43,369 nucleotides of DNA from an uncultured Clostridia bacterium (lineage in GTDB: Bacteria > Bacillota > Clostridia > Christensenellales > UBA1242): NCBI GenBank assembly GCA_944349765.1, contig CALVNN010000005.1:1-43369 (forward strand). Reading direction: 5' to 3'. A program made the position numbers and the translations under genes. This document shows positions 20,889 to 35,593 of the stretch, piece after piece. Under the pieces are notes generated by a model. It did no database searches and had not been told where the DNA came from. It saw nothing but the letters and a program-made list of their open reading frames with translations. Within the stretch, counting starts at the first letter, position 1; each line of letters starts with the position of its first letter.

Positions 20889-22595
20889 ATGAGAAAAAGC
20901 GGTTCAGGCTGTGGGAAAACATTATCATTTTTTATTGGTATGTTTGTCGGAGTTCTTGTTGTAGTAATTGGTGTAGTTGGTGTTGGATTGTGGACTTATA
21001 ATAATTTAAGCCTTGCTAGACTTGAAAAGACTTTTAATGTAGAGATTAATATAGGTGATGAAGAGTTTAAGAATAAAGCTATCAAAGACCTTATCCCAGA
21101 AGTGACTAATCTAATGAATTCTTCAGTAGGTGAGATAGCTTCTACGTTGGGCTATACTATCCCTACAAATATTGAGGTCGTGCCTGCAAATGGTAGTGAG
21201 CCTGCTAAGTATGCAGACCTTTCAGAAGCTATGAATATAGTACTTAATGGTAAGATAACTGGTATAACTTCTAACCTTCAAAAGATGATAGATTTTGTGA
21301 CTTTTGGGTACGTTTATAATGTTCTCCATGAACCTATGGACATACCAAATATAAAATTGTTTACAAGGTATAAAGATGTTAAGGTTGTAAATGTTGGTAA
21401 TATTATTAATCAAATAACAGTAGCTGATATTATGGAACCAAACCTAAACGAGGCTGGTCAGGAAATACCATATGAGGGTGTATTAGGTGCTATATCTGAT
21501 AAAACTTTGGTTTATTTGATGCAAGAGGGCAATATGGAAGCCACCATAAATGGCCTTAAATTGGAAGATGTTATAGAAATAAGCGAAACTGATACTGGCA
21601 TTTTGGGTTCATTAAAGTCGCTGACTATTGGTAGCCTTAATAATGATACTATTATAAATGCTATAAATGATAAAAAACTAGGTGATATCCTTAAAATAAC
21701 AGCAACTAACGGTGTTATGTCTAAGCTGAAAGATGTAACAATAGGTGAGATTAGCGCAGGAAATATAGATGATGAGATAAAGTCTTTAAAACTAAGTGAA
21801 ATTATTGAAATAACTGATACGCAAGGTATAATGTTTGCCTTAAAAGATAAGACAATAAGCGAACTAAATGCTTCAACAATAATGGAATTAAAGGTGTCTG
21901 ATATTTACAATATTACTGACACAGAAGGCGTAATGTATGCTATAAAAGATTGGAAATTGAATGAATTGACAGATGTTAAGTTTAAGACTTTACAAATTAA
22001 TCAGTTGATACCTATAAGTGATACCGAGACAGGCATTTTAGGCGCTATAGGTAGTTGGCAATTAAATGCATTGACCGAGAATAATTTACAATCCCTGACT
22101 TTAGCTAGTATATTAAATATCAAAACAGATACAGGCATTTTAGGTGCCTTGAAAGATTTAAGTTTGAAGGAATTGACAGACGATAATATTAAGACAAGTA
22201 TTGAAACGCTTAAATTAGAAGACATTATAACTATTGAAGCTACAGATAATAATGTTTGGAATGCTATAAAAAATAGTACAATAGGGGAGCTTGATAATAC
22301 TTTAAATAGCTTAACACTAAGTCAATTCATAGAGCCAAATGGTACAGGCGATGAAGAGGGGCAGTATGTAGGGTTGTTAGGTTATTTAATCACCGAGACT
22401 AATGATCCGCTTATTAGCGAAATGGATACTGCTTTAGATGATGCTGTAAATGCTTATATAAAAGATGTTACGATAGGTGAGCTTATAGATAACGGTGTTA
22501 TTAATGAACCTACAGGTTATAGTGAAGAAGAGATGGCGATTTTAAGAGGTACAAAACTCGTTGACTTTATCAATAATAATTTGAATAAACAATAA
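20889..22595 (+). CDS. Single-pass membrane protein with degenerate extracellular repeats
   Basis: The 568-residue protein has one N-terminal membrane segment (about 11-35, very rich in Val and Gly) after a short basic start, so the bulk probably faces outside. From about residue 180 to the end it carries seven to nine degenerate repeats of about 30-37 residues. Their core is I-DT-GILGALKD-TIGEL, each followed by a segment like LKLSDIIEI. The alternation of short hydrophobic strands suggests a repetitive beta or solenoid-like stalk. I recognise no domain family. AAGGAAGG precedes the ATG, and the gene has its own promoter and terminator. Confidence 0.7.
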   Translation: MRKSGSGCGKTLSFFIGMFVGVLVVVIGVVGVGLWTYNNLSLARLEKTFNVEINIGDEEFKNKAIKDLIPEVTNLMNSSVGEIASTLGYTIPTNIEVVPANGSEPAKYADLSEAMNIVLNGKITGITSNLQKMIDFVTFGYVYNVLHEPMDIPNIKLFTRYKDVKVVNVGNIINQITVADIMEPNLNEAGQEIPYEGVLGAISDKTLVYLMQEGNMEATINGLKLEDVIEISETDTGILGSLKSLTIGSLNNDTIINAINDKKLGDILKITATNGVMSKLKDVTIGEISAGNIDDEIKSLKLSEIIEITDTQGIMFALKDKTISELNASTIMELKVSDIYNITDTEGVMYAIKDWKLNELTDVKFKTLQINQLIPISDTETGILGAIGSWQLNALTENNLQSLTLASILNIKTDTGILGALKDLSLKELTDDNIKTSIETLKLEDIITIEATDNNVWNAIKNSTIGELDNTLNSLTLSQFIEPNGTGDEEGQYVGLLGYLITETNDPLISEMDTALDDAVNAYIKDVTIGELIDNGVINEPTGYSEEEMAILRGTKLVDFINNNLNKQ

Positions 22596-22597
22596 AT

Positions 22598-22629
22598 AAA
22601 AACGCATTGATTTAACCAATGCGTTTTTT
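22598..22629 (+). terminator. Terminator of the repeat-protein gene
   Basis: AAAACGCATTG pairs with CAATGCGTTTT and is followed by a T-run, directly after the stop codon. Confidence 0.88.
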
Positions 22630-22646
22630 ATAAAACTTACACATAC

Positions 22647-22676
22647 AAAAAACGCCTTTAATGTAAGGCGTTTTTT
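22647..22676 (-). terminator. Terminator of the pilin-like gene
   Basis: AACGCCTT and AAGGCGTT form a stem with a six-base loop, with A6 and T6 flanks. It lies 3 bp from the end of the minus-strand pilin gene; it could also act on plus-strand readthrough. Confidence 0.85.
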
Positions 22677-22678
22677 AA

Positions 22679-23041
22679 TTATTCTGTAACAGCAACTTCG
22701 GTTAAGCCTAAAACAGCTTCGATGTTTGCAGCTAATGCATAAATCACTACGAGTAGAACAATGATAATTGCGAAACCAACGATTACGTTAATCAAACGTT
22801 TCTTAGCCGCATCTCTAGCTTCACTTGAGTCAGCTCTTGCCATATTCACACCCAAAATAACCGCATAAATGGTACCAGCAGCTAAAATGACTATAATAAG
22901 TGGAAGCATAAAACTATCAACCAGTCTAAGAATAGGTGCTAAGAAGGCATAACCTTCATAACCTTCATAACGCCCTGCCTCTAAGTTATCAGCCACTTCA
23001 GACAAAGCAGACATCAGAGTTGTTAAACCAAATAGATTCAT
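22679..23041 (-). CDS. Type IV secretion pilin-like (VirB2/TrbC-type) small membrane protein
   Basis: The 120-residue protein has two membrane segments, about 46-69 and 88-108, joined by a short charged cytoplasmic loop (ARADSSEARDAAKKRL). This is the layout of VirB2/TrbC-type and Gram-positive T4SS_pilin proteins, in which the loop after the first helix ends in AKKRLINVIVG. The N-terminus (about 40 residues) contains a short EGYEGY repeat and no clear cleavable signal. It is divergent from the VirD4-like gene, which strengthens the assignment, yet no VirB4, VirB6, relaxase or lytic transglycosylase is near. GGAGG lies seven bases before the ATG, and its leader can form alternative hairpins. 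Confidence 0.65.
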   Translation of the reverse strand: MNLFGLTTLMSALSEVADNLEAGRYEGYEGYAFLAPILRLVDSFMLPLIIVILAAGTIYAVILGVNMARADSSEARDAAKKRLINVIVGFAIIIVLLVVIYALAANIEAVLGLTEVAVTE

Positions 23042-23117
23042 ACAAGTTCCTCCATAAAAAGATAATTAAAGATTTTTTCGTCTCAATTCCTGATAGAGGA
23101 ACTTCAACTAATTATCA
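23042..23117 (-). promoter_or_regulatory. Pilin mRNA leader with mutually exclusive hairpins
   Basis: The predicted leader is 76 nt. A 9-base segment, AAGTTCCTC in the mRNA (plus-strand 23096-23104), is perfectly complementary to GAGGAACTT (23044-23052), which contains the Shine-Dalgarno site. Part of the same first segment can instead pair locally as TTCCT-CTATC-AGGAA (23087-23101). The two structures exclude each other: one hides the ribosome site and the other frees it. Confidence 0.5.
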
Positions 23118-23123
23118 GTTACA

Positions 23124-23152
23124 ATGATAACACATAATAAAATAGTGTGCAA
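23124..23152 (-). promoter_or_regulatory. Promoter of the pilin-like gene
   Basis: On the minus strand TTGCAC (23147-23152), a 17-bp spacer and an extended -10 TGTTATCAT (core 23124-23129). The predicted start of transcription is near 23117. Confidence 0.6.
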
Positions 23153-23276
23153 CTAAAATTTTACATTTTTTTTAAAAAAATTTATTTTTTTTCATATCCT
23201 TTTCACAATCATAGTTTGTCTATATTATATTTATATTATTCTATTTTTTAAAAAATTATTTATCATATCAATTTGC
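23153..23276. other. AT-rich intergenic core between divergent pilin and coupling-protein genes
   Basis: The divergent gap of 297 bp (23042-23338) holds the two promoters at its ends. The middle is almost pure A and T, with several runs of 6-9 T or A at near-helical spacing, which suggests curved DNA. I see no ORF, RNA gene or clear operator in it. Confidence 0.4.
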
Positions 23277-23305
23277 TTTACAAAAAAAATGATATTTGAT
23301 ATAAT
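23277..23305 (+). promoter_or_regulatory. Promoter of the VirD4-like gene
   Basis: TTTACA at 23277-23282 and an extended -10 TGATATAAT (core 23300-23305) are 17 bp apart; the leader is about 27 nt with AGAGG before the ATG. Confidence 0.75.
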
Positions 23306-23338
23306 CATATTACTAGATTATTTGGTGTAGAGGTAAAT

Positions 23339-25309
23339 ATGGATGCTTTGTTAAAAATGATAGGTAAAGCTGTAGGTGTATTTGTCCTAGCGTTAGTTAT
23401 AGTAGTACTAGTTAGGGTGTTTGCTTTGAGTGAGACTTTTGATTTTTCATTAGTTTATGATACTACGACATTAACTATTGCAGGTTTATTATTATTATGC
23501 TACGTAATGTATGCTTTATTAAATTATGACAAGAAAAAGCCAAAGGAGACTTTTAAAAACCCTGGTAAGGTCAAGACGGTTGATGGAAAAGAAGTAGATC
23601 AATATTCTAATATGCGTTGGGTGACTGATAATGAGTTGATGCATGAAAAGAAATTTGGATTTAATTATTTTTCTGATTTGGCTAGATGTAAAAATGATGG
23701 TGTGCTAATTAGAAGTGAGCTTAGAGGTAATAGACTTTTGACTAATATGTACAAGCCTATTCATACCCTAATATTAGGTACGACTGGTAGTGGTAAGACC
23801 GAAGGTTTTGTAATACCTAGTATCAATGTCTTGTCAAGTTGTGCTAGTAAGCCTAGCTTGGTTATTACCGACCCAAAAGGTGAATTGTATAAGAAGACTG
23901 GGCGAAAACTATTGGATTCTGGCTATGAAATCAAGATGCTAGATCTTAGAGAGCCTCAAAAGTCAACTTGTTGGAATCCTATGGATGACGCGTATACACT
24001 ATTTCATAGAGCGCACAATTTGGAAAGTGAAGTGAAGCTATTTAAAGGCGTAAATCCTGCCGATACAGAATATAAGCATATAGCCAGTGAATATAATAAT
24101 GAATGGTTTGGATTTAATGGCATAGCTTACCCTGATAAAGAAATGTTAAATAATGACCTTCAAGGGGAGCAGAAGATATTAATATCAAGAGCTGACGATA
24201 TACTACATGATATAGCAATGGCTCTCTGCCCTGTAGTTAACGAAAAAGATCCTACTTGGGAGCGTGGTGCCCAGGATTTGATTTGGGGTGTTATGACGGC
24301 AATGCTAGAAGATAGCTTGGATCCTAACTCTGGTATGACTCGTGAAAAGTTTAATCTTTACAACGTAAATCAAATATGTTCATATGTTGACGTTGGGGAA
24401 GACCCTTATTATACATTAAGAAATTATTTGATGATGCGTGATAAGAGTAGCCCTGTTATCAGTCGTACGACGACCTCTGTAAATAACGCTACAGGCACTA
24501 CCAAATCTTATATGGGTATTGTGCTTACATCTCTATCTTTATTTAGTGATAGCGGTATAGCGTTTGCTACGTCAAAAAATGAGATGAATTTTGATACATT
24601 TACAGATAAGCCTACAGCTCTTATAATTAGAGTGCCAGATGATGTTGTTACTAGACACCCTATAGCTACTATGATGATAAGTAGAGTTTATAAGACTTTG
24701 GTCGAAAGAGCCGAAAAGAATCCTGATAGCAAGCTAGAGAGAAATGTTTATTTTATATTGGATGAGTTTGCTAATTTACCTAAGATAAACGACTTTGCAA
24801 ATATTATTACAGTATCTCGTGGCCGTGGTATTTTCTTTGAAATGGTAGTTCAATCTTATAGTCAGCTAAATACTAAATATGGAGATACAGTAGCTAAAAC
24901 TATTAGAGAGAACTGTAACATTCAGATATATATTGGTTCTGACGATATGACGACAAAAGAAGAATTTAGTAAGCTTTGTGGTAATATGTCAGCTTTGAAG
25001 ACTAACAAGAGTAAGACTAAGGATAAAGATGGCAAGGGCGGTGGTGAAAATGAATCACAAGAAGCTATCCAACGTCCATTGATATATCCAGACGAACTCA
25101 GCGTTCTTCCTAGCGAGACTGCAATAGTTAAGATATTTAAAGAATATCCTATGAAAGTCAAGTTTAATCACTCTTATAAATATCCAATGTTTACAAGAGT
25201 ACCACCTGATGAAAAATATGCTCCATTAAGGAGATTAAATGAAGCTGAAGTGCGTTATGATATAAGTCAAGTTATTAATAAACGTAAAAAACCTAGCATT
25301 TTTAATTGA
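23339..25309 (+). CDS. VirD4/TraG-family type IV coupling protein (ATPase)
   Basis: The 656-residue protein has two N-terminal membrane segments (about 10-30 and 45-63). Then come a Walker A motif GTTGSGKT at 147-154, an ITDPKGELY block, a Walker B motif FILDEF at 472-477 followed by ANLPKI, and the SRGRGIFFEMVVQS-Q segment typical of TraG/VirD4. These hexameric ATPases bring DNA or protein substrates to a type IV secretion channel. An insertion of about 100 residues between the DPKGE region and ERGAQDLIWG is normal in the Gram-positive branch. No relaxase or channel gene is nearby. It is divergent from the pilin-like gene, and the pair may be a remnant of an integrative element or part of a split system. 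Confidence 0.92.
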   Translation: MDALLKMIGKAVGVFVLALVIVVLVRVFALSETFDFSLVYDTTTLTIAGLLLLCYVMYALLNYDKKKPKETFKNPGKVKTVDGKEVDQYSNMRWVTDNELMHEKKFGFNYFSDLARCKNDGVLIRSELRGNRLLTNMYKPIHTLILGTTGSGKTEGFVIPSINVLSSCASKPSLVITDPKGELYKKTGRKLLDSGYEIKMLDLREPQKSTCWNPMDDAYTLFHRAHNLESEVKLFKGVNPADTEYKHIASEYNNEWFGFNGIAYPDKEMLNNDLQGEQKILISRADDILHDIAMALCPVVNEKDPTWERGAQDLIWGVMTAMLEDSLDPNSGMTREKFNLYNVNQICSYVDVGEDPYYTLRNYLMMRDKSSPVISRTTTSVNNATGTTKSYMGIVLTSLSLFSDSGIAFATSKNEMNFDTFTDKPTALIIRVPDDVVTRHPIATMMISRVYKTLVERAEKNPDSKLERNVYFILDEFANLPKINDFANIITVSRGRGIFFEMVVQSYSQLNTKYGDTVAKTIRENCNIQIYIGSDDMTTKEEFSKLCGNMSALKTNKSKTKDKDGKGGGENESQEAIQRPLIYPDELSVLPSETAIVKIFKEYPMKVKFNHSYKYPMFTRVPPDEKYAPLRRLNEAEVRYDISQVINKRKKPSIFN

Positions 25310-25310
25310 T

Positions 25311-25339
25311 AAAAAGCTGTGAAACATCACAGCTTTTTT
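25311..25339 (+). terminator. Terminator of the VirD4-like gene
   Basis: AAAAAGCTGTGA pairs with TCACAGCTTTTT around a four-base loop. It directly follows the stop codon and can also serve the convergent gene. Confidence 0.9.
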
Positions 25340-25360
25340 GTTGTAAAAATGTATATAAGC

Positions 25361-26203
25361 TCAATCTATTTCATAGTAATCTTTACCTCGTTTCTTTTTT
25401 CTTGGTATTGAGGTGGGGGTGTTTGGTGGCTGCATTTTAATTATTTCACTATTTTGAGGCAAAACTTTTGATTTTTTACCACCTGTCTTTAGCATAATTA
25501 AGAGTAATAAGATTGTGGGTATTATAATGGCAAGAATAATAGCAAGCTCCGAAGTGCTCGGTGGCTCAAAACTTGGTACAGTTTCATTGTTGTCTGTAAC
25601 GACTTGCCAGTTGTGCTTTGCGATTGGGTATAAACTAATAGAATTCGGCGTGAAATTTGTAAACATATCTGTTAGTCCACTATAGACGTAACCATATTGT
25701 GTTACGCTATTTTTTGTATAACTTACGTAGTACCAATCATTGCCTTTGGCTGGCACGACTTCATCTCCCTCAATTTTACCATAGTATACAAAGTTTGTTT
25801 CATATAGGGGTAGTTCTGTGATTAAAGAATTTAGGCCTTTAGAGCGAGATGGCTCCGATCTAAGTTCGGCACTTTGTTCTGCTAGTATACGAAAGTTTAC
25901 ATAATCTAAATACGGTACAGCTGGGTATTCGTCAACGCATTGTATTTCATTAGCTCTTACATATCCTACAACATTCATATAACGTGCCTTATAGTATCCC
26001 TCACTTTCGTCCTCTAATAAGTTGACATAAAAAGTATTAGGTATTTCAAATAACGGCTTAGTACCCTTATCTTCAAATAAAAATACATTTTCTGTCTGTA
26101 TTTGAGCAAAAAAATTTTGTTCTTCAGCATACACATTGATATAAGTATTTATGTTGACCATTAAAATTGCTACCAATAAAATTAATTTGATATATTTATT
26201 CAT
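25361..26203 (-). CDS. Secreted-side membrane-anchored protein with SH3b-like domains
   Basis: The 280-residue protein starts with a signal peptide (about 1-26, ending near NVYAEE). It continues with two SH3b-like beta modules at roughly 30-90 and 95-185; the second has an LRSEPS motif and NDWYYVSY. One membrane segment lies at about 217-240, with a basic cytoplasmic tail ending PRKKKRGKDYYEID. SH3b domains often bind peptidoglycan, so a wall-facing anchor is likely. ATG at 26203 is chosen for AAAGGAG upstream and for the signal peptide; an earlier start at 26233 would add residues before it. The gene lies between the coupling protein and the capsid cassette. Confidence 0.75.
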   Translation of the reverse strand: MNKYIKLILLVAILMVNINTYINVYAEEQNFFAQIQTENVFLFEDKGTKPLFEIPNTFYVNLLEDESEGYYKARYMNVVGYVRANEIQCVDEYPAVPYLDYVNFRILAEQSAELRSEPSRSKGLNSLITELPLYETNFVYYGKIEGDEVVPAKGNDWYYVSYTKNSVTQYGYVYSGLTDMFTNFTPNSISLYPIAKHNWQVVTDNNETVPSFEPPSTSELAIILAIIIPTILLLLIMLKTGGKKSKVLPQNSEIIKMQPPNTPTSIPRKKKRGKDYYEID

Positions 26204-26260
26204 AACAAACTCCTTTATTTTAAGGATAAACAAAAAATTTATTATTGTTAATTATTTTAT

Positions 26261-26289
26261 TTGACTAAAAATAAATAAATAACAAGAAT
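26261..26289 (+). promoter_or_regulatory. Weak promoter candidate before the terminase gene
   Basis: TTGACT at 26261-26266 and AAGAAT at 26284-26289 are 17 bp apart. The -10 box is poor; a TATAAA at 26295 has no -35 partner. Confidence 0.3.
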
Positions 26290-26311
26290 TATTGTATAAA
26301 GTGAGAATTTG

Positions 26312-27814
26312 ATGAAAAAAACTACTAAAAAAAGTAAAACGGTGTATGTTGATAATGATTATAAGGACGTAAGTTTGCGTGGCATAATATCTAAGATACA
26401 CAAACTAGATGATGAGCTTTCTAAGAGACAGCCTACTAAGGCTTTGGCAGAGTACAATACGGGAGAAGTTATCCACAAAAAGCAAGTTGAATTTCATAAA
26501 TGTCAAAAGCGTAATAGATGGGTCTTTGGTGGTAATAGAAGTGGTAAAAGTGAATGTGGTGCAGTAGAGGCTGTTTGGCTCGCAAGGGGAATACATCCTT
26601 ATAAGGAGAATAAAGATAATATTTTTGGTTGGGTTGTATCATTGTCGTCACAGGTACAAAGAGATGTCGCTCAAGCAAAAATATTAAAATACCTAAATCC
26701 TTATTGGATCAAAGATATTGTGATGCTAAGCGGTAAAAAAGAAAGTCCATCTACAGGTATCATAGACTACATTATCATTAGAAATGTATTTGGCGGAGAG
26801 AGTAGAATTGGTTTTAAAAGTTGCGACCAAGGCAGAGAGAAATTTCAAGGAACTTCGCTTGATTTTGTGTGGTTTGACGAAGAACCTCCATTTGATATTT
26901 ATATGGAATGCAAAATGAGAGTTTTGGATAGATGTGGGGACATATTTGGGACCATGACGCCTCTAAAGGGCTTGACGTGGGTGTACGATACAATTTACCT
27001 TAATACTTATAATGATAGTGAAGTATGGTGTATTTTTATGGAATGGGCAGACAATCCATACCTTAGTTCAAAAGAAATAAAATCTATCAGTGCAAGTATG
27101 AGTGCTGAAGAGTTGGAAAGTCGTCGCTATGGCAAGTTTACTAGTGGCGGAGGCTTGGTATATAAAGATTTTGATGTGAATGAAAATATAATTGATCCCT
27201 TTGAAGTCCCTATTGAATGGTACGACAACATTAGCATTGACCCGGGGCTCCATAATCCTCTATCTTGTCATTGGTATGCTGTAGATTATGATGGTAATGT
27301 ATATGTCATAGCTGAGCATTATGCTTCTTCACTAGATATACAAGAGCATAGTAAACGAATAAAGGAAATAAGCAAATCTTTAAATTGGCCAGTAAATAGC
27401 AATGGGATGTATTCCGCTCTTATAGATAGTGCGGCCACGCAAAAGACTCTTGCCAGTAGCAAAAGTGTAGCGGAATTATTTTACGACTTAGGTATACTTG
27501 TGAATACAAAGGTAAATAAAGACCTTTTTTCTGGTATAAGCCGTGTAAGATCTTATATAAAAGATGCTAATGGAAAACGCCATCTATTTATTTTTCGTAA
27601 TTGTGTAAATATGATTAGAGAGATAAAAGGATATTTTTGGGGTAATGACGATGCTCCAGTTAAAAGAGATGACCACGCAATGGACGAATTAAGGTATTAC
27701 ATAATGAATAGACCAACTATACCTGTAAAAGAAACGGCAGAACCCACTTTAATCTCTAAAGACAAACGTAAATTAATGCACAGACTGGAAAAAAGGGCGA
27801 ATTATAGATTTTGA
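26312..27814 (+). CDS. Phage terminase large subunit
   Basis: The 500-residue DNA-packaging motor has an N-terminal ATPase with Walker A GGNRSGKS at 73-80 and a hydrophobic strand ending in DEE (VWFDEEPP, about residue 187-194) as Walker B. A C-terminal RNase-H-like nuclease follows: SIDPGLHNP carries the first Asp and KRDDHAMDELRYYI a late Asp pair. The motor pumps DNA into the prohead and the nuclease cuts it. All visible motifs are intact, so the enzyme could be active. ATG at 26312 is preferred over the TTG at 26309; the ribosome site (GTGAGA) is weak. Confidence 0.93.
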   Translation: MKKTTKKSKTVYVDNDYKDVSLRGIISKIHKLDDELSKRQPTKALAEYNTGEVIHKKQVEFHKCQKRNRWVFGGNRSGKSECGAVEAVWLARGIHPYKENKDNIFGWVVSLSSQVQRDVAQAKILKYLNPYWIKDIVMLSGKKESPSTGIIDYIIIRNVFGGESRIGFKSCDQGREKFQGTSLDFVWFDEEPPFDIYMECKMRVLDRCGDIFGTMTPLKGLTWVYDTIYLNTYNDSEVWCIFMEWADNPYLSSKEIKSISASMSAEELESRRYGKFTSGGGLVYKDFDVNENIIDPFEVPIEWYDNISIDPGLHNPLSCHWYAVDYDGNVYVIAEHYASSLDIQEHSKRIKEISKSLNWPVNSNGMYSALIDSAATQKTLASSKSVAELFYDLGILVNTKVNKDLFSGISRVRSYIKDANGKRHLFIFRNCVNMIREIKGYFWGNDDAPVKRDDHAMDELRYYIMNRPTIPVKETAEPTLISKDKRKLMHRLEKRANYRF

Positions 27815-27835
27815 AGATTATGTGACCATCAAATA

Positions 27836-27863
27836 TTGACTTTTACGCTTTTGGGTGTAGAAT
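27836..27863 (+). promoter_or_regulatory. Internal promoter of the capsid cassette
   Basis: TTGACT at 27836-27841 and TAGAAT at 27858-27863 are 16 bp apart, in the 174-bp gap after the terminase gene. The leader to the next gene would be about 119 nt. Confidence 0.5.
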
Positions 27864-27988
27864 ACAAGCAAAACTAATGAAAATCTAACTTATAAGTCAA
27901 AATTTATGTTACTTAAGATTATTAAACTTAGTACAAATGATTTACAATATATTATTTTACTTTAACCAAAAATTACAGAGGTGGATTA

Positions 27989-28255
27989 GTGATAGATGAG
28001 TCGAAATTACATAGTTCACTTTTGAAGAAAGCTTTAGGATACGAAGTGAATGAGGTTACGGAAGAGTACAATATGGAAGACGATGCCCTAAAACTCACCA
28101 AACGTCGTGTAGTCAAAAAGCATATACCGCCTGATTATTCTGCGGTAAAGGTATTATGCGAATACTTTAATGGTACGGGATTAGAGGATTACACAGAGGA
28201 AGAGTTGATACAGGAAAAACAAAAACTATTAAACCAACTTAAGGATTTCAATTAA
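27989..28255 (+). CDS. Small-terminase-subunit-like protein
   Basis: The 88-residue protein contains KALGYEVNEVTEEY followed by a basic strand pair (LTKRRVVKKHIPPDYSAVKVL). This is close to the C-terminal region of many Bacillota small terminase subunits, whose typical form is KKHVPPDTTAIIFWLKN. The DNA-binding helix-turn-helix that usually comes first is absent, so this is either a shortened TerS or a related adaptor. TerS recognises the packaging start site and loads the large subunit. The order large-then-small is reversed relative to most phages. GTG is the start, with AGAGGTGG upstream. Confidence 0.5.
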   Translation: MIDESKLHSSLLKKALGYEVNEVTEEYNMEDDALKLTKRRVVKKHIPPDYSAVKVLCEYFNGTGLEDYTEEELIQEKQKLLNQLKDFN

Positions 28256-28265
28256 AGGAGCTAAA

Positions 28266-30143
28266 ATGGCTAAGAAAATAGATGTAATGGAAGAAAAACT
28301 TAAAAATGAGATTGTGACCGAAGTATTAGAAGACTTTAAAAAGCGTCAGCAAGAGCGAAAAAACTTTGAAGGTCAATGGCGACTAAATATGAATTTTGTG
28401 CTTGGTAATCAATACTGTTCTCTAAATTCAAATAATGAAGTTGAAGATTATGACAAGCGTTATTTTTGGCAAGAAAGAGAAGTATATAATCACATTGCTA
28501 GTATTATAGAGATTAGACTTAGTAGACTTAATTCGGTTAGGCCCAAAATGAGCGTAATACCATCTAGTGCAGATATAAAAGATATTTCGGCGTCAAAAAT
28601 GAGTAAAGCGGTGTTAGATTCACTTGCACACAAGATAAATCTAAGTAGTATCTTATCTGAAGGGGCGTCTTGGTCGGAAATGTGTGGTACGTGTTTTTAT
28701 AAGGTGGTATGGGACAGTAATGCGGGCAAAGTGGTTACGTTAGACCCTTATATGATTAAGGAGGGTGATGTCGGCGTAAGCGTTATACCACCTTTTGAAA
28801 TCTTCCCATACAATAACAATATTTCTAGACTTGAAGACAATCCAAGCATTATACATGCAAGGGCATATCCTGTAGAAACAATTAAAAGCATATGGGGTAT
28901 TGATGTCGCTGGCGAAACGTTAGACGTATTTAGTTTATCGTCGACAAATACAATAAGTGGCTTTGGATATACTCAAAATATTACGAGTTGTGGTAGTGAA
29001 GCAAAAGACAATCACGCTTTGGTCATTGAAAGATATGAAAAGCCTACAACTGAACATCCTAATGGTAGATTGGTAATAGTTATTAAAGATCAACTAGTAT
29101 ATGATGGTGAATTGCCTTACATAAATGGGGTAGATGGACAAAGGACATATCCATTCATAAAGCAAATGTCTGTAGCGGTGCCTGGGTGTTTTTGGGGGAT
29201 TAGTGTTATTGAGCGTGCTATACCAGTACAAAGAGCGTATAATGCACTCAAAAACCGTAAACTAGAATTTTTAAATCGTTTAAGTATGGGCGTAATGATG
29301 GTTGAAGATGGCTCTATAGACATAGACGATCTTGAGGATGAAGGGTTGTCTCCAGGAAAAGTGATTGTCTATAGACAAGGAGCGACCCCACCAGCAATGA
29401 TGTCGTCAAATCGTTTGCCTGTAGATTTTGCTAGTGAAGAAAATAGATTAATGAATGAGTTTTCGTTGATTAGTGGTATCAGTGACCTTATGCGCCAATC
29501 TCAGTCTACTTATGCAAATCTTAGCGGAACCGCCTTGCAACTGCTTATTGAACAAGATACTTCAAGGCTATCATGCTCAATAGACAATATTAAATTTGCC
29601 GTCATTGAGATAGCTAAACAAGTGTTAAGACTGTATAAACAGTTTGCTGTCGTTCCTAGACTTGCAAAAATAATGGGCGAAAAAAATAGTGTCGAAGTAT
29701 TTTATTTCACAAATTCGGATTTGGGTGGCGACGATATAGTTTGTGATAGTGAAACCGAGCTTTCTTCATCAAAAGCGAACCAAAGAAGTATGATTTTTGA
29801 ATTATTAAATTCTGGATTACTACAAGATGAAACTGGAAGAATTTCCAATGATGTCAGATATAAGTTGCTTGAGATGTTGGGGGTAGGAATATACGATAGC
29901 AAGCAGGATTTAGCGCAAATGCATATTAAAGCAGCTCAAAAAGAAAACCTAAACTTTTCTAGGCTTGATTTTAGTGACGAAGTACAATCTTACGATGAAC
30001 ATGAACTACATATTAATGAACATATAGCGTTCTTATTATCTAAAGAAGCGGAAGAAATCAATAAGGATAAAAACTTAAAGAAAAAAGTGCTGGATCATAT
30101 AAACATGCACAGAAATTGTATTAAATTGATGCAAGGAGAATAA
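28266..30143 (+). CDS. Phage portal protein, P22-like
   Basis: The 625-residue protein is of the long portal class found in P22-like podoviruses. It has an N-terminal helical part with GQWRLNMNFVLGNQY, the YNHIASIIE and RPKMSVIPSS strands, a CFYKVVWD wing segment, and a helical C-terminal barrel. A dodecamer of this type forms the DNA entry vertex where the terminase docks. AAGGAG precedes the ATG, and the next gene begins 1 bp after the stop. Assignment rests on architecture, size and position between terminase and scaffold. Confidence 0.85.
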   Translation: MAKKIDVMEEKLKNEIVTEVLEDFKKRQQERKNFEGQWRLNMNFVLGNQYCSLNSNNEVEDYDKRYFWQEREVYNHIASIIEIRLSRLNSVRPKMSVIPSSADIKDISASKMSKAVLDSLAHKINLSSILSEGASWSEMCGTCFYKVVWDSNAGKVVTLDPYMIKEGDVGVSVIPPFEIFPYNNNISRLEDNPSIIHARAYPVETIKSIWGIDVAGETLDVFSLSSTNTISGFGYTQNITSCGSEAKDNHALVIERYEKPTTEHPNGRLVIVIKDQLVYDGELPYINGVDGQRTYPFIKQMSVAVPGCFWGISVIERAIPVQRAYNALKNRKLEFLNRLSMGVMMVEDGSIDIDDLEDEGLSPGKVIVYRQGATPPAMMSSNRLPVDFASEENRLMNEFSLISGISDLMRQSQSTYANLSGTALQLLIEQDTSRLSCSIDNIKFAVIEIAKQVLRLYKQFAVVPRLAKIMGEKNSVEVFYFTNSDLGGDDIVCDSETELSSSKANQRSMIFELLNSGLLQDETGRISNDVRYKLLEMLGVGIYDSKQDLAQMHIKAAQKENLNFSRLDFSDEVQSYDEHELHINEHIAFLLSKEAEEINKDKNLKKKVLDHINMHRNCIKLMQGE

Positions 30144-30144
30144 T

Positions 30145-30792
30145 ATGGACGAGATAAAAGGAGAACAACCATTACCAAGCGACGATAGTGCAGTAATAGA
30201 GTTAGAGATAGATAACGAGAATAATTCTCAAAATAAAGAGGCTGAAGTAGTTGACACCGATGGCTCTCCGATTGGAAAATTTAAAAGTGTTGAAGCGTTA
30301 TATTCTGCTTATAACAATTTGCAAGCGGAATTTACGAAGAAATGCCAAAAATTAAGTGAATTGCAAAAAGAAGTTGAAAGTAAGGTATATATACCATTAG
30401 AGACTCAACCTGATTATATGAGGGATGATTGGGAGATTGAGGTCAGCAACTTTTTGAAGTCACACCCTGAAGCCAAAAAATATGCGACTCAAATAAGTGA
30501 AGAGAAGCTAAAGGAACCGAGTTTGTCTTTGGAGCAGTCTTTGGATAGAGTATTGGCTAGGGAGTATAAAGAACCTAAAAAATTGATAGAAGACGAAGAT
30601 TTTTTAAATAATTATGTCTTTAACAGCCAAAAAATAAAAAACAAGGTATTACAAGATTACTTTTCTTCTTTAAAGAGTAATCCAATACCTACTCTTATGA
30701 GTAAAGGATCAGGTGCTATCAGTGCAGGTCAGTCTGAAAAGGTGGATAGTTTGGTAGAGGCTGGCAAACTGGCGATTAATTTATTTAGGTAA
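30145..30792 (+). CDS. Scaffold-like protein
   Basis: The 215-residue protein lies between portal and major capsid genes, the normal place of a scaffold. It is highly acidic at the start (DDSAVIELEIDNENN), then has a coiled-coil segment (about 45-80, YSAYNNLQAEFTKKCQKLSELQKEV) and a Lys-rich C-terminal part. Scaffolds of tailed phages guide prohead assembly and leave before packaging. No protease gene is visible. The assignment is by position and composition, not by sequence family. Confidence 0.65.
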   Translation: MDEIKGEQPLPSDDSAVIELEIDNENNSQNKEAEVVDTDGSPIGKFKSVEALYSAYNNLQAEFTKKCQKLSELQKEVESKVYIPLETQPDYMRDDWEIEVSNFLKSHPEAKKYATQISEEKLKEPSLSLEQSLDRVLAREYKEPKKLIEDEDFLNNYVFNSQKIKNKVLQDYFSSLKSNPIPTLMSKGSGAISAGQSEKVDSLVEAGKLAINLFR

Positions 30793-30851
30793 TGATTAAT
30801 AAAATTATTAATTTTAATAATATGAAAATTATAAAATAAGGAAGTGCATGG

Positions 30852-32078
30852 ATGGTAACATTAGAAAGTGCGGATAATGCGTTAAAAACTATCTACCTTG
30901 GCGTAGTTAGTAACCAACTAAATGTTAACGCTAACCCGCTTTTAGGTAAGATATTACAGACAACTAGCGATGTTTGGGGAAATGAAATTCGTAAACTTGC
31001 ACCTTATGGACTCAATGGTGGTATTGGCGCAGGTGAAGAAGCTGGAGATTTGCCAAGCAGTGCTCAAAATAATTATGTAAAGTTTGTATCAGAACTTAAA
31101 AACTTATATGGTACAATAAATATTAGTGATAAGGCAATTCGTGCCTCTAGCAATAGTGCAGGTGCCTTTGTAAACCTTTTGAATGCAGAAATGGAAGGAC
31201 TTATCAAAGCTTCATCATTCAACTTTGGTAGAATGCTATACGGTGACGGGTCAGGACTTTTGGCTACAGTTACAGCGTACTCAAGTGGTGTAGCTACATT
31301 AGATAGTGTAAGAAACCTTATTGAGGGTATTGTTGTAGATATCTATAATTCTACTACTAAAGTGTACTCAGCAATTAGAGTAAAATATGTCGACAGAGTA
31401 AATAAAAAGGTTACTTTTGAGGGTACTATGTCTACAGATTTGGCTAATGGGTATACAATTTATGTGCAAGGCTCTAAAGGAAATGAAATAACTGGTCTTG
31501 GTGCAATATTTAGTGCTAGCTCGACACTTTATGGCGTAAGTAAGACTGAGTATCCTTGGATGAATGCATATACTAGCACAAATGCAGGCGAAATAAGTGA
31601 CACGATTATTCAAAGTGCTATAGATTTCCTTGATGAAGTAAGTGGTAGTGAAGTAGACTACATCTCTTGTTCTGCTGATGTTAAGAGAGCATATCAAGCT
31701 TATCTTGGAAGTTATAGACGTAATATAGACATTATGGAGCTAAATGGCGGTTATAAAGCCATTACTTACAATGGTATACCAGTAGTAAGCGATAGATTTG
31801 TTGAAGATGGTACCATGTATTTACTCAACACCAAGGAATTTGCTTTGCATCAACTTTGCGATTGGAAGTGGTTGGAAGGTGAAAATGGCAGAATTATTAA
31901 GCAAGATGCTGGTAAGCCAACTTATACAGCTACACTAGTTAAATATGCAGATTTAATTTGTGACAAACCTAATGGTCAGGCTAAAATTAGCGGTATTACT
32001 GGGTCAACTTCTAATCCTTTTGCTCCAGTAATCAATATTGTTAATGGCGAAGTCCAAGAAGACGGTAGTGAAGGTTAA
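30852..32078 (+). CDS. Major capsid protein (HK97-like fold)
   Basis: The 408-residue protein has the features of a major capsid protein: a short N-arm, an APYGLNGG loop, an LKNLYGTINISDKAI strand region, a large beta-rich middle, and a late ITYNGIPVVSDRFV segment followed by the MYLLNTKEFALHQLCDW block seen in many capsid proteins. The size and lack of a long helical delta domain suggest assembly on the separate scaffold gene upstream. AGGAAG lies eight bases before the ATG. A terminator after it may keep its expression above that of the following minor proteins. Confidence 0.85.
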   Translation: MVTLESADNALKTIYLGVVSNQLNVNANPLLGKILQTTSDVWGNEIRKLAPYGLNGGIGAGEEAGDLPSSAQNNYVKFVSELKNLYGTINISDKAIRASSNSAGAFVNLLNAEMEGLIKASSFNFGRMLYGDGSGLLATVTAYSSGVATLDSVRNLIEGIVVDIYNSTTKVYSAIRVKYVDRVNKKVTFEGTMSTDLANGYTIYVQGSKGNEITGLGAIFSASSTLYGVSKTEYPWMNAYTSTNAGEISDTIIQSAIDFLDEVSGSEVDYISCSADVKRAYQAYLGSYRRNIDIMELNGGYKAITYNGIPVVSDRFVEDGTMYLLNTKEFALHQLCDWKWLEGENGRIIKQDAGKPTYTATLVKYADLICDKPNGQAKISGITGSTSNPFAPVINIVNGEVQEDGSEG

Positions 32079-32131
32079 TTATAGCAAGTTTTAAGCAACA
32101 AGTAAGTTTTAAGTTGTGAGGAATATATTAG

Positions 32132-32166
32132 CAAAAGACAGGTTTTCCAATCTGTCTTTTCTTTTA
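32132..32166 (+). terminator. Intra-cassette terminator after the capsid gene
   Basis: AAAAGACAG pairs with CTGTCTTTT around a ten-base loop and is followed by CTTTT. It lies between the major capsid gene and the next small gene. Confidence 0.75.
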
Positions 32167-32181
32167 AAAGTAGAGGTAATA

Positions 32182-32496
32182 ATGATAATAAATAGTGATG
32201 TTTTTGATATTACAAAAAGAGTTAAGGCCATAGATAAAAGCTATCTAATTAATTGGAACGAAAAGAAGCAGCGTTACGAAGTGGTTAGGATGATAAATAA
32301 TAGGTTGGTTGTAGAACTTATTATACCTTACAGTGCTCTTGACGCTAGAACCATTATTTTATTGCATAAAAGCTCTATTAAAAATATTCATTCCATTATT
32401 CGTGCATATGAGCATAACAATTATAAGCTTAGTGCGGATAGTATGGAGGAGCAAAAATATAGACTTGCTTATGATTTAAAAATACTATTTCAATAA
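32182..32496 (+). CDS. Small cassette protein of unknown function
   Basis: The 104-residue protein lies between the capsid and adaptor genes. It has a beta-rich start (INSDVFDITKRVKAID, then YEVVRMINNRLVVELIIP) and a helical C-terminus with several Tyr. Its place suggests a head decoration or completion protein, but I know no family match. The start is the ATG at 32182 with AGAGG upstream. A GTG start at 32116 is rejected because the extension would run through the terminator hairpin. Confidence 0.6.
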   Translation: MIINSDVFDITKRVKAIDKSYLINWNEKKQRYEVVRMINNRLVVELIIPYSALDARTIILLHKSSIKNIHSIIRAYEHNNYKLSADSMEEQKYRLAYDLKILFQ

Positions 32497-32508
32497 AGAG
32501 GAGATTGT

Positions 32509-33111
32509 ATGGAACAATATTTATCCGTATATGAGTTGCTGGGTTTGTCAGCTAGAATGCTTAGAAAAGAAGATTTAGCCTATGACTTTTTGGAAGGTTC
32601 TTTGCCCCCGCCTACCGATTCTGGGATGTCGGGTCAAGTAACTTTGGATACAAATTCGTATGAATATAAGTTATTTATAACAGCGGTAAATAATGTTTGT
32701 GAAGACTTAGCTGCTCAATATTCATTGTTATGTTATGAAGAGACCTTTTCTGGTAACAAAATAAAGTATTCCGATCTTGAGTACAATATAGCTAAAGTGA
32801 TAGAAGTTAAAGACCCTAAAGGTAATAAAACAAAATTTTATAGGAGCAGTGATGGCTTGCTTTTTTCAAAAACTGACACTTACACCATTCTTTACACCTA
32901 TAAGCCAAATAAAATAACTGGAAATACACAAATTATGCTTTATCCTATTGTGCCTAAAGCCACTTTAGCTTATGGCGTGTGTGCACAATATTGCATAATG
33001 GATGGTCTATTTGATGAGGCTGAAATGTGGGAGTCGAGATATAAAGAAGCATTGCTTGGACAATTTAGACAAACAAAAAATATAAAGATGAGAGCGAAAA
33101 TATGGCAATAA
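32509..33111 (+). CDS. Head-tail adaptor / head completion protein
   Basis: The 200-residue protein occupies the adaptor position, after the capsid and before the neck protein. An N-terminal helical region is followed by beta strands with YKPNKITGN and a C-terminal helical pair with many aromatic residues (ECQYCIMDG-like block, EMWESRYKEALLG). This is the general layout of gp4/gp6-like adaptors that bind below the portal. GAGGAG precedes the ATG, and the stop overlaps the next gene by 10 bp. Assignment is by position and layout. Confidence 0.6.
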   Translation: MEQYLSVYELLGLSARMLRKEDLAYDFLEGSLPPPTDSGMSGQVTLDTNSYEYKLFITAVNNVCEDLAAQYSLLCYEETFSGNKIKYSDLEYNIAKVIEVKDPKGNKTKFYRSSDGLLFSKTDTYTILYTYKPNKITGNTQIMLYPIVPKATLAYGVCAQYCIMDGLFDEAEMWESRYKEALLGQFRQTKNIKMRAKIWQ

Positions 33112-34586
33112 TTAATCAAAGCAATAATAGATTACCTAGTGTGCAATATGCTATGGTGGATTTTAGTGATTTTTTGAATGGTATTAATACGCAATATGAT
33201 GATAGTATTATGCCAATAAGATATGCACTAGAATGTTCAAATTTTAGTACCGACAAAGGCGTATTAAAGACTGGACTAGGACTAAAGAAGTTGGTTTTGC
33301 CTATTTCTATAGATGACCCAGAGGGTGGCGTGGAAATGGTAGAGGATTTTGAAGACGCCGAGCCACTAAAAGTTATGCATTTTAGGTTCTGGGAGCCAAA
33401 TGCAAATGAACAGCAAAATAGGATACTTATATACCTAAGTGATGGTAGAATTATTTGGCGTCGTATGTATGATAATTTTAATCTATATATAGTACTACCT
33501 AATCTTACTTTTACAAGTGTTCCTAATTTGCTAAATTATCGTCTCAATGATGACAAAGATATTGGTATATTTATGTCAAAAACCGACCATTTAAAAGTAT
33601 GGGGTCCTAAATTTTCAATAATGGAGATAGAGGATGCACCTTTAATGACTAGTATGTGCTTGCATTTTGAAAGACTGTTTGCGACAGTAGAAGGTAAAAA
33701 TACTTCAATTTGGTTTTCGGACAGTATGGACCCGACCAACTGGAATGTAAGCAGTACTGAAGCAGGATATTTTCATCTATATGACACTTTAGGTGGTGCA
33801 AATAAAATAATATCTTTTAATAATTATTTATATATATTTAGAGACTTCGGCATTACAAAAGTCACAGCTTATGCAGAGCAATCAAGTTTTACAGTAAGCA
33901 ATATTTACACTAGTAGTAACGTTATTTTTGCGGATACGGCATGTATATGTGGTGATAATGTATTTTTTCTAGCAAGCGACGGACTGTATGGCTTTGATGG
34001 TGCGGGTGTAAAGAAACTAAATCTAAATTTTGAAGGCATATTTGATGGAGTAGATAATAGTAAAGCTCAGTCTGAATTTCATAAAAATTGCTATTATTTA
34101 CTTTGTAATACTAAATATTCCTCAGATGAAGATTATTTAGGTACTTTACTTGAGCTTAATGTTGAGACGGGGGCATTATCATTGCTCACAGGGTATAAAT
34201 TTGTAAGTATGACGGCTATAAGAAATGACCTTGTAGAAAAGTTGATTGTCATAATCAGAAATAATCAAGAAAATATCCTAACACAATTGACTCATGATGG
34301 GTTAGTTTTGGGTGAGGCAACCACAAAAAAATGGAAAAGCGCAATGACTGATTTGGGCGAACCAAATAAGATTAAGACCATAAAAAGTATTAGTTTAATC
34401 AGTGAGTATGATTGCACGGTAGAACTTGAGACAGAAAATAAAAAGATTTCACTTAATATAAAAGGCAATCCTTTACCTCAACGAAGAGCATTAAATCTGA
34501 CAGGTAGTCTAATAAGTGTTGGTTTTATTACAAAAGGTCAAAATGCTAAAATAAGTCATCCAGAAATGGAAATATGTTACAAATAG
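33102..34586 (+). CDS. Neck / DNA-stabilisation protein, P22 gp10-like
   Basis: The 494-residue protein begins with VDFSDFLNGINTQYDDS, followed by the ECSNFSTDKGVLKTGLGLKK pattern seen at the start of many podovirus neck and tail-tube proteins. Its middle carries a characteristic FERLFATVEGKNTSIWFSDSMDPTNW segment, also common in gp10/gp12-type proteins. A beta-propeller-like repetitive organisation is likely. Such proteins close the portal channel and form the short tail tube. It overlaps the upstream gene, and its last bases overlap a possible start of the next. Confidence 0.72.
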   Translation: MAIINQSNNRLPSVQYAMVDFSDFLNGINTQYDDSIMPIRYALECSNFSTDKGVLKTGLGLKKLVLPISIDDPEGGVEMVEDFEDAEPLKVMHFRFWEPNANEQQNRILIYLSDGRIIWRRMYDNFNLYIVLPNLTFTSVPNLLNYRLNDDKDIGIFMSKTDHLKVWGPKFSIMEIEDAPLMTSMCLHFERLFATVEGKNTSIWFSDSMDPTNWNVSSTEAGYFHLYDTLGGANKIISFNNYLYIFRDFGITKVTAYAEQSSFTVSNIYTSSNVIFADTACICGDNVFFLASDGLYGFDGAGVKKLNLNFEGIFDGVDNSKAQSEFHKNCYYLLCNTKYSSDEDYLGTLLELNVETGALSLLTGYKFVSMTAIRNDLVEKLIVIIRNNQENILTQLTHDGLVLGEATTKKWKSAMTDLGEPNKIKTIKSISLISEYDCTVELETENKKISLNIKGNPLPQRRALNLTGSLISVGFITKGQNAKISHPEMEICYK

Positions 34587-34654
34587 AATATGATTTAAAA
34601 GAATTAGCGAAGCAAATTAATCAAGAAATGTTTAATTTAAGTGGAGGACAAAAA

Positions 34655-35593
34655 ATGTTTGAATATAAGTTTAAAGATTTGAATCAAGACAAAGAAAAAC
34701 AAGACGGTAGGAAAGATTTGATAGAAAAGATAAAAGGCGTCGAGCAAACGTTTCAATTAAGCGAAATGCCGGCTAAAGCTGAAGATATTAAGTTGGATCG
34801 TAAGGAATACAAGGATGTTGACAATGAGGCTATAAAAGCTGAAGCTACTAACAGCTTAAAATCTTACTTAACCGAAGGATTAAACGAAATTAACCAAGAT
34901 TATGAAGATTCAAAGCTTAAGATAGATAATGAGATAAATGAAGCGAACTCAAACTCAAAAAATAAGTTAAATACAATAGATAATAGTTATAACGACAAAA
35001 AGCAAAGCACAGTAAATTCATCAATAAAAAAGGGTACCAATAGAGGCTCTATCTTGAATGAACAGATACAAGATCTGGATGAACAAAAAGAAGAGGACAT
35101 AAGTGCGGTAAAAAGTGATTTGGATACAAAAATCAGTTCTCTTAATTCGCAAAAGGAATTACTTGAGACTAAAAAATTGAATGCACTTAATGCTTTTGAT
35201 ATTGCTTATGCTGTAAAGCTTGATGAAAAAATTAGTAAAATCAATGAAGATTTAGCTACTTATAATCAAAAAGTCCAAGAATATAATAACACTATAGAAC
35301 AAAAAGAAAAAGAGTACGCCTTAAAAAATGAGGCTGAGTACCAAGAGAATGTAGACCGTATTATGGATAGAAATCAGCAGTTAATAGATTTTATAGCGGA
35401 GCAAGGGCGTGATGGGCTAGAATCTAGAATAGCACTCAAAAAGACTGAGATGGCTCTAGAATTTTTTGAGTCTATGAAGCCAGCAGATGCTTTGACTATG
35501 CTTATTGAAGATGCTGAACTCGCAAACGCTTTGGGAGATACTGCGTTTCAGGCGGTGTTAGAGGCTTTGCGTCAAAAATTGGTAGGCGAATAA
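34655..35593 (+). CDS. Long coiled-coil virion-associated protein
   Basis: The 312-residue protein is almost entirely helical and charged, with long heptad-like stretches from about residue 60 to 240 (repeated INEAN, LDEQKEED, SSLNSQKEL and similar). The end is a more compact, hydrophobic helical domain. It may be a tail needle, an internal virion protein, or a length-determining rod. The start chosen is ATG 34655, because GGAGG lies seven bases upstream. A longer frame from ATG 34574 adds 27 helix-like residues but has no ribosome site; both products are possible. Confidence 0.6.
   Translation: MFEYKFKDLNQDKEKQDGRKDLIEKIKGVEQTFQLSEMPAKAEDIKLDRKEYKDVDNEAIKAEATNSLKSYLTEGLNEINQDYEDSKLKIDNEINEANSNSKNKLNTIDNSYNDKKQSTVNSSIKKGTNRGSILNEQIQDLDEQKEEDISAVKSDLDTKISSLNSQKELLETKKLNALNAFDIAYAVKLDEKISKINEDLATYNQKVQEYNNTIEQKEKEYALKNEAEYQENVDRIMDRNQQLIDFIAEQGRDGLESRIALKKTEMALEFFESMKPADALTMLIEDAELANALGDTAFQAVLEALRQKLVGE

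What the first reader, a model, noticed from the sequence alone, without database searches (positions are those of the whole stretch)
22679..25309. Pilin-like protein and VirD4-like coupling ATPase without the rest of a secretion system
A VirB2/T4SS-pilin-like gene and a VirD4/TraG gene with intact Walker motifs are divergently transcribed from one AT-rich intergenic region. No relaxase, VirB4, VirB6 or transglycosylase is nearby. Both frames are open and have good promoters, which argues against decay. They may serve a split or minimal DNA-transfer or secretion machine. The capsid cassette follows directly, so a functional link between the coupling ATPase and packaging is worth testing.
Basis: partly seen in the sequence, partly recalled or inferred. 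Interest (0 to 1): 0.6.

Follow-up and report, generated by a model that had tools for sequence, protein, structure and literature searches.

The report
Family-wide relaxase-less type IV secretion machine
The two genes are the coupling motor and pilin of a conjugation-derived secretion machine that a whole family of small-genome gut bacteria has kept in its chromosomes, apparently without a DNA-nicking relaxase, so it probably does something other than spread itself; its position beside a phage-like capsid cluster here is a coincidence of this lineage.

Summary
The divergent pair is real: a VirB2-like pilin (22679-23041, -) and a VirD4 coupling ATPase (23339-25309, +). It is neither orphan nor remnant. 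The same genome encodes VirB4 (cut by an assembly gap, so its intactness here is not shown) and a VirB6-like protein on other contigs. Of 118 family genomes (42 genera, Christensenellales), VirD4 occurs in 115, VirB6 in 115, pilin in 113, VirB4 in 112, often clustered. VirD4 and VirB4 follow the rpoB tree (12-13 of 17 splits; chance 0.2); VirD4 is under purifying selection. A relaxase above the PF03432 cut-off occurs in 1 of 118 genomes; MobL was not searched genome-wide. All 23 core VirD4s examined lack the 80-110-residue tail of mobile relatives. Best reading: a domesticated, dispersed, mycoplasma-ICE-type T4SS acting in cell contact on proteins (more likely) or non-relaxase DNA. Precedents: Patescibacteria T4SS, Rickettsia rvh, archaeal Ced/Ted. 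The capsid cassette is a separate conserved, GTA-like machine found in many families of the order; VirD4 lies within 20 kb of it in 1 of 103 genomes, so a coupling-packaging link is not supported.

The parts
22679..23041 (-). VirB2-like (T4SS) pilin, 120 aa, two long hydrophobic helices
   Evidence: PF18895 E 9.9e-6, NF045849 E 3.7e-8; relatives beside VirD4; AlphaFold helices 35-69 and 73-105, mean pLDDT 80
23042..23338 (.). AT-rich divergent promoter region between pilin and VirD4
   Evidence: 19.9% G+C; promoter-like matches on both strands
23277..23305 (+). promoter-like site for VirD4 (TTTACA-17-TATAAT, TG extension)
   Evidence: consensus match only
23224..23252 (-). promoter-like site for the pilin gene (TTTAAA-17-TATAAT)
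   Evidence: consensus match only
23339..25309 (+). VirD4/TraG-type coupling ATPase, CD1115 family, 656 aa, short C-terminal tail
23777..23800 (+). Walker A motif GTTGSGKT of VirD4
24755..24781 (+). Walker B region ILDEFANLP of VirD4
22598..22628 (-). terminator-like hairpin downstream of the pilin gene, on its strand
   Evidence: consensus match only
25361..26233 (-). NEIGHBOUR, not part of the T4SS: SH3b-like secreted protein that travels with the capsid cassette
   Evidence: cluster c10 in 13 of 21 capsid loci
26309..35593 (+). NEIGHBOUR, not part of the T4SS: GTA-like podovirus-type capsid cassette (TerL, portal, probable scaffold, major capsid and further structural genes)

Best explanation
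The pair is the coupling ATPase and pilin of a chromosomal T4SS derived from a monoderm (mycoplasma-ICE/CD1115 type) conjugation apparatus, captured at or before the base of this Christensenellales family and inherited vertically. Shown by sequence: the core set VirD4, VirB4 (with an N-terminal membrane segment), a VirB6-like channel protein and one or more VirB2-like pilins is kept across the family; in many relatives it forms a cluster (long secreted protein, VirD4, divergent pilin, often a lipoprotein, VirB6, VirB4, long cytosolic protein), which is dispersed in this genome. Inferred: VirB6 and VirB4 build an envelope channel, the pilins form a contact structure, and VirD4 feeds it a substrate that is not relaxase-bound DNA. 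More likely (about 55%) the substrates are proteins delivered to neighbouring cells; less likely (about 30%) it moves chromosomal DNA; adhesion or other uses take the rest.
For: Presence in 118 family genomes / 42 genera: VirD4 115, all genera; VirB4 112, all genera; VirB6 115, all genera; pilin 113, 41 genera. Own VirB4 pieces on two contig ends match residues 1-565 and 715-904 of a relative's 905-aa VirB4. Own VirB6: NF045848 133 bits, cut-off 90, and NF045889 81 bits, cut-off 70. Relaxase PF03432 above cut-off in 1 of 118, no match in this genome. Vertical descent: Mantel r with rpoB 0.82 (VirD4), 0.84 (VirB4); 12 and 13 of 17 tree splits shared against 0.2 expected. The 13 mobile or outgroup VirD4s sit on one side of a branch, SH-aLRT 97. 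dN/dS about 0.02-0.14 in five VirD4 pairs of near relatives. C-terminal tail 14-35 aa in 23 of 23 core VirD4s, 79-111 aa in 7 of 7 mobile ones. A mobile copy in the same family does carry a relaxase: MobL, 82 bits, cut-off 28.5. Protein-substrate lead: the long membrane-free proteins near VirB4 do not match one another at E 1.
Against: No substrate, secretion or DNA transfer was observed. MobL and other relaxase families were not searched genome-wide, so an undetected relaxase elsewhere is possible. The pilin is just under both curated cut-offs and its fold has no significant PDB match. No VirB1 or VirB8 was recognised. VirB4 of this genome lacks about 150 residues at an assembly gap. The C-tail comparison uses 7 mobile proteins of few types. 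Divergence of the long proteins near VirB4 would also fit structural or regulatory proteins.
Confidence: 0.72

Rival explanations
1. Relaxase-independent chromosomal DNA exchange: the machine moves cellular DNA between siblings, like archaeal Ced/Ted or the chromosome transfer seen in ICE-positive mycoplasmas.
For: Components match mycoplasma-ICE families; ICE-positive Mycoplasma agalactiae shows oriT-independent, distributive chromosome transfer (PMC6819513, PMC6030558); Ced/Ted are domesticated T4SSs of VirB4, VirB6 and pilin without relaxase (PMC9905601); VirD4, a DNA-type motor, is kept in 115 of 118 genomes.
Against: ComEC is present in 117 of 118 genomes, so a DNA-uptake channel already exists; no DNA-processing partner was recognised in the clusters; core VirD4s have only a short C-terminal tail.
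Confidence: 0.28
2. Remnant or partly decayed conjugative element (ICE).
For: ICE-like copies with related VirD4/VirB4/VirB6, one tested with a MobL relaxase, occur in some family members.
Against: Near-universal presence, purifying selection, rpoB-congruent trees, intact Walker motifs, and core proteins on the other side of a branch from the mobile ones.
Confidence: 0.05
3. The coupling ATPase works with the neighbouring capsid cassette in packaging or transfer.
For: The two lie 1 kb apart here; both are conserved family-wide; the sister genome G016 has its pilin 12 kb from the capsid gene; VirB6 lies 12-19 kb from the capsid gene in some g27 genomes.
Against: VirD4 is within 20 kb of the capsid gene in 1 of 103 genomes; an opposite-strand gene separates them; the cassette has its own large terminase; many families of the order carry the capsid gene with VirD4 absent or sporadic.
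Confidence: 0.05

Closest known systems
Patescibacteria (CPR) T4SS, monoderm MPF-FATA type (PMC12102498)
   Same: Chromosomal and lineage-wide; VirB4, coupling protein, VirB6, VirB2-like pilins (PF18895 was among the profiles used) sometimes in arrays; relaxase mostly missing; small genomes; related to Firmicutes conjugation systems.
   Different: Different phylum; here a Bacillota family with its own accessory genes (long secreted protein, lipoprotein, long cytosolic protein), some very long VirB6 forms and dispersed genes. Whether the two share one capture event was not tested.
Mycoplasma ICE conjugation module (ICEA/ICEB; Mbov_0395-0397, CDS5/CDS17; PMC6030558)
   Same: VirB6 over two family cut-offs, VirB4 at 586 of 590 bits, pilin close to cut-off; order pilin-VirB6-VirB4 as the model names suggest; a lipoprotein gene in the cluster.
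   Different: Mobile element there, vertically inherited here. The lipoprotein is not shown to be related to CDS14.
Archaeal Ced/Ted DNA-import systems (PMC9905601)
   Same: Domesticated chromosomal T4SS of VirB4-like ATPase, VirB6-like channel and pilin without relaxase.
   Different: A VirD4 coupling protein is kept here; DNA import is unproven; components belong to bacterial ICE families.
Rickettsia rvh T4SS (PMC2653234)
   Same: Conserved across the genus, genes scattered over the chromosome, multiple extended VirB6 proteins.
   Different: Diderm system with VirB8-VirB11; gene set and type differ.
Faecalibacterium FpGTA (PMC12946183), for the neighbouring cassette only
   Same: About 10-kb operon of TerL, portal, scaffold and major capsid, podovirus-like, in gut Bacillota.
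   Different: Homology to FpGTA was not tested; packaging of host DNA in this family is not shown.

Membership tests
VirD4/TraG coupling ATPase (CD1115 family, NF045973) | Score over curated cut-off; Walker A and B; TraG-D C-terminal domain | tested here: met
   302.9 bits, cut-off 250; TraG-D_C 114.8, cut-off 22; motifs
VirB2-like T4SS pilin (PF18895, NF045849) | Score over curated cut-off; pilin fold | tested here: inconclusive
   26.0 of 26.6 and 32.9 of 40 bits; an ICE relative of it scores 49; two-helix model, no significant PDB match
Self-transmissible conjugative element (ICE) | Relaxase with the T4SS | tested here: not met
   PF03432: none in this genome, 1 of 118 over cut-off; none among the proteins scanned from the clusters. 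MobL not searched genome-wide
Self-transmissible conjugative element (ICE) | VirB4, VirB6 and coupling protein in the genome | tested here: met
Self-transmissible conjugative element (ICE) | Integration and excision module, attachment sites | not tested
   No integrase search was made
Mycoplasma-ICE-type T4SS | VirB4 (NF045975) and VirB6 (NF045848, NF045889) over cut-off | tested here: inconclusive
   VirB6 over both; VirB4 of a relative 586.2 of 590
Co-opted lineage-wide T4SS (Patescibacteria type) | Near-universal, vertically inherited, chromosomal, without relaxase | tested here: met
   relaxase tested with PF03432 only
Co-opted lineage-wide T4SS (Patescibacteria type) | VirB4 falls in the Patescibacteria clade | not tested
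   No Patescibacteria sequences were in hand
Ced/Ted-like DNA importer | Imports DNA | not testable with these tools
   Needs an experiment
Gene transfer agent (neighbouring cassette) | Capsid genes conserved and vertically inherited | tested here: inconclusive
   Capsid gene 111 of 118, 42 genera; portal vs rpoB Mantel 0.78 and 10 of 17 splits, but the major capsid gene alone gives r 0.16, p 0.099
Gene transfer agent (neighbouring cassette) | Packages random host DNA | not testable with these tools
   Needs particle sequencing

The most novel reading that the evidence does not exclude
A bacterial counterpart of Ced/Ted: a whole gut-bacterial family has domesticated a conjugation machine to exchange chromosomal DNA without a relaxase, alongside an order-level capsid system and ComEC, so that two DNA-mobilising machines are fixed in about 1-Mb genomes.
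Probability: 0.2. Interest if true: 0.88.

Novelty: new variant of a known kind. Interest (0 to 1): 0.62.

Why it matters
Conjugation machines are normally the property of mobile elements. Here one appears fixed as core equipment of a bacterial family with small genomes, a further bacterial case beside Patescibacteria and Rickettsia, and within the gut Clostridia. If it injects proteins, it would be a contact-dependent interaction system of largely uncultured gut bacteria; if it moves DNA, it would be a bacterial analogue of Ced. Mobile relatives in the same family give a built-in comparison for how a conjugation machine is domesticated. No paper on a T4SS of this family was found in the library searched, which lacks most subscription journals.

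Tried and rejected
1) Orphan pair: rejected, VirB4 and VirB6 found on other contigs. 2) ICE remnant: rejected on distribution, trees and selection. 3) T4SS-capsid unit: adjacency unique to this genome. 4) Naming the long proteins near VirB4 and the long secreted protein: no Pfam match for those scanned, no mutual similarity among the former at E 1. 5) Lipoprotein next to VirB6 as a VirB8 substitute: three-sequence alignment, AlphaFold mean pLDDT 32, uninformative. 6) Pilin fold search: no significant PDB match; an archaeal conjugative pilin ranks 22nd at E 6.8. 7) Capsid protein distances: MCP alone does not follow rpoB significantly (r 0.16, p 0.099), perhaps because some genomes carry two tandem copies; the portal does. 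9) IMG/VR: the 15 capsid relatives lie on contigs of 6-19 kb, none longer; VirD4 has only two distant relatives there.

Full report
WHAT IS IN THE WINDOW. The two genes are as described. The pilin-like gene (22679-23041, -) and the VirD4 gene (23339-25309, +) are open and divergent from a 297-bp region of 19.9% G+C. VirD4 scores 184 bits to T4SS-DNA_transf and 303 bits to the CD1115 coupling-protein family, above its cut-off of 250, with intact Walker motifs. The pilin matches T4SS_pilin (26.0 of 26.6 bits) and the mycoplasma-ICE pilin family (32.9 of 40) just under cut-off; its status as a pilin rests mainly on its conserved place beside VirD4. Promoter-like sites face both genes; the stretch scanned (22560-26400) holds 31 such matches against 18.9 expected.

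THE REST OF THE MACHINE IS IN THE GENOME. The window is contig C5 of a 977-kb, 30-contig assembly, 93% complete. A VirB4 search found two pieces at contig ends: 563 residues at the start of C22 and 193 at the end of C8. They match residues 1-565 and 715-904 of a relative's 905-residue VirB4, so one VirB4 gene is most likely cut by an assembly gap; the pieces were not joined. A VirB6-like protein of 751 aa lies on C1 behind a 572-aa lipoprotein and exceeds the cut-offs of two conjugation families.

IT IS CORE TO THE FAMILY. In 118 genomes of the same family (42 genera), VirD4 occurs in 115, VirB4 in 112, VirB6 in 115 and the pilin in 113. VirD4 and pilin lie within 20 kb in 81 of 98 genomes, VirD4 and VirB4 in 35 of 103 (positions entered by hand from the search tables). 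In the clustered loci read, the usual order is long secreted protein and VirD4 on one strand, and pilin(s), often a lipoprotein or another long gene, VirB6, VirB4 and a long cytosolic protein on the other. The window's genome is a dispersed version.

IT IS INHERITED VERTICALLY AND SELECTED. Distances in VirD4 and VirB4 follow rpoB (Mantel r 0.82 and 0.84). Trees of 20 genomes share 12 (VirD4) and 13 (VirB4) of 17 splits with rpoB against 0.2 expected from shuffled labels. Five VirD4 pairs of near relatives have dN/dS about 0.02-0.14. The organisms are Christensenellales: VirD4 of Candidatus Onthoplasma faecipullorum falls inside the core clade. The family's exact name was not established.

IT APPEARS TO LACK A RELAXASE, UNLIKE MOBILE COPIES IN THE SAME FAMILY. 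PF03432 gives one genome of 118 above cut-off and no match at E 0.001 in this genome. Some relatives carry a second, ICE-like T4SS with VirD4, pilin, VirB6 and VirB4 on one strand; the one tested has a MobL relaxase upstream (82.2 bits, cut-off 28.5). MobL was not searched genome-wide; the PF03432 search did pick up that MobL gene weakly (G012), so it is not blind to the type. The mobile and outgroup VirD4s lie on one side of a branch with SH-aLRT 97. After the conserved Y-D-I motif, all 23 core VirD4s have 14-35 residues and all 7 mobile ones 79-111. C-terminal tails of coupling proteins are known in other systems to contact the relaxosome (general knowledge), so this fits a change of substrate; that step is inference, and so is the direction (tail lost rather than gained).

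HOW IT PROBABLY WORKS. From known T4SS biology, VirB6 and VirB4 make the channel, the pilin a contact structure, and VirD4 recruits substrate. Retention of VirD4 argues for a translocated substrate rather than adhesion alone. The long membrane-free proteins near VirB4 (12 examined for membrane segments; 15 candidates compared) keep position and size, yet no two match at E 1, although two of them had been joined by the looser clustering; the four scanned have no Pfam match. Fast-evolving substrates would look like this, but so would other fast-evolving proteins. DNA exchange remains open: the nearest families are those of mycoplasma ICEs, and ICE-positive mycoplasmas show oriT-independent chromosome transfer (PMC6819513, PMC6030558). 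ComEC is present in 117 of 118 genomes, so uptake of DNA does not need the T4SS. I put protein delivery at about 55%, DNA exchange about 30%; these are judgements, not computed.

THE CAPSID NEIGHBOUR IS A SEPARATE MACHINE. The major capsid gene occurs in 111 of 118 family genomes, and in the 20 relatives read the cassette keeps its gene order in most, with the SH3b gene in 13 of 21 loci. Across 200 genomes of the order it occurs in 110, including many families, while VirD4 outside the family is sporadic and more distant, best 386 bits. Portal distances follow rpoB (r 0.78), those of the capsid protein itself do not significantly (r 0.16, p 0.099). It is GTA-like by these signs; DNA packaging is unproven. 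VirD4 is within 20 kb of it in this genome only (1 of 103).

COMPARISON. The best match in kind is the T4SS of Patescibacteria, which is chromosomal, widespread, mostly without relaxase, and has VirB2-like pilin arrays (PMC12102498). Dispersal and extended VirB6 recall Rickettsia rvh (PMC2653234). Ced/Ted show that such machines can be turned to DNA import (PMC9905601). I file this as a new variant of a known kind: a domesticated T4SS, here as core equipment of a Bacillota family.

LIMITS. Everything is sequence inference from mostly draft genomes; absence in single genomes may be assembly loss; the 118 genomes are an even draw from a larger family; the pair counts use one position per genome, read from the printed part of the tables; no substrate or activity was observed.

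Noticed in passing
window 25361-35593; L198-L217: Podovirus-type capsid cassette, syntenic across the family and present in many families of the order; looks like a gene transfer agent (packaging not shown). In IMG/VR its relatives are on contigs of 6-19 kb only.
   Followed up: partly
L229, L230, L231, L235 (G026:C2, G012:C7, G084:C2, G072:C7): Second, ICE-like T4SS copies in some family members, with a 1,440-1,510-aa protein between VirD4 and pilin; in L230 a MobL relaxase lies upstream of VirD4.
   Followed up: partly
L083, L084, L087; G056:C3, G097:C1: Very long VirB6-like open frames (1,840-2,787 aa in the loci read; open frames up to 6,797 aa listed) and about six VirB6 matches per genome in one branch.
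   Followed up: no
G003, G043, G098: Seven or eight pilin matches per genome, like pilin arrays of Patescibacteria.
   Followed up: no
L216 and genera g2, g16, g29, g41: Two major capsid genes in tandem.
   Followed up: no
window 14977-17646: One 889-aa frame that reads by eye as phosphoglycerate kinase fused to cofactor-independent phosphoglycerate mutase; no search was run.
   Followed up: no
window 20889-22595: 568-aa membrane-anchored protein with many degenerate repeats of unknown function; weak SporV_AA match at cut-off (25.1 of 25 bits).
   Followed up: no
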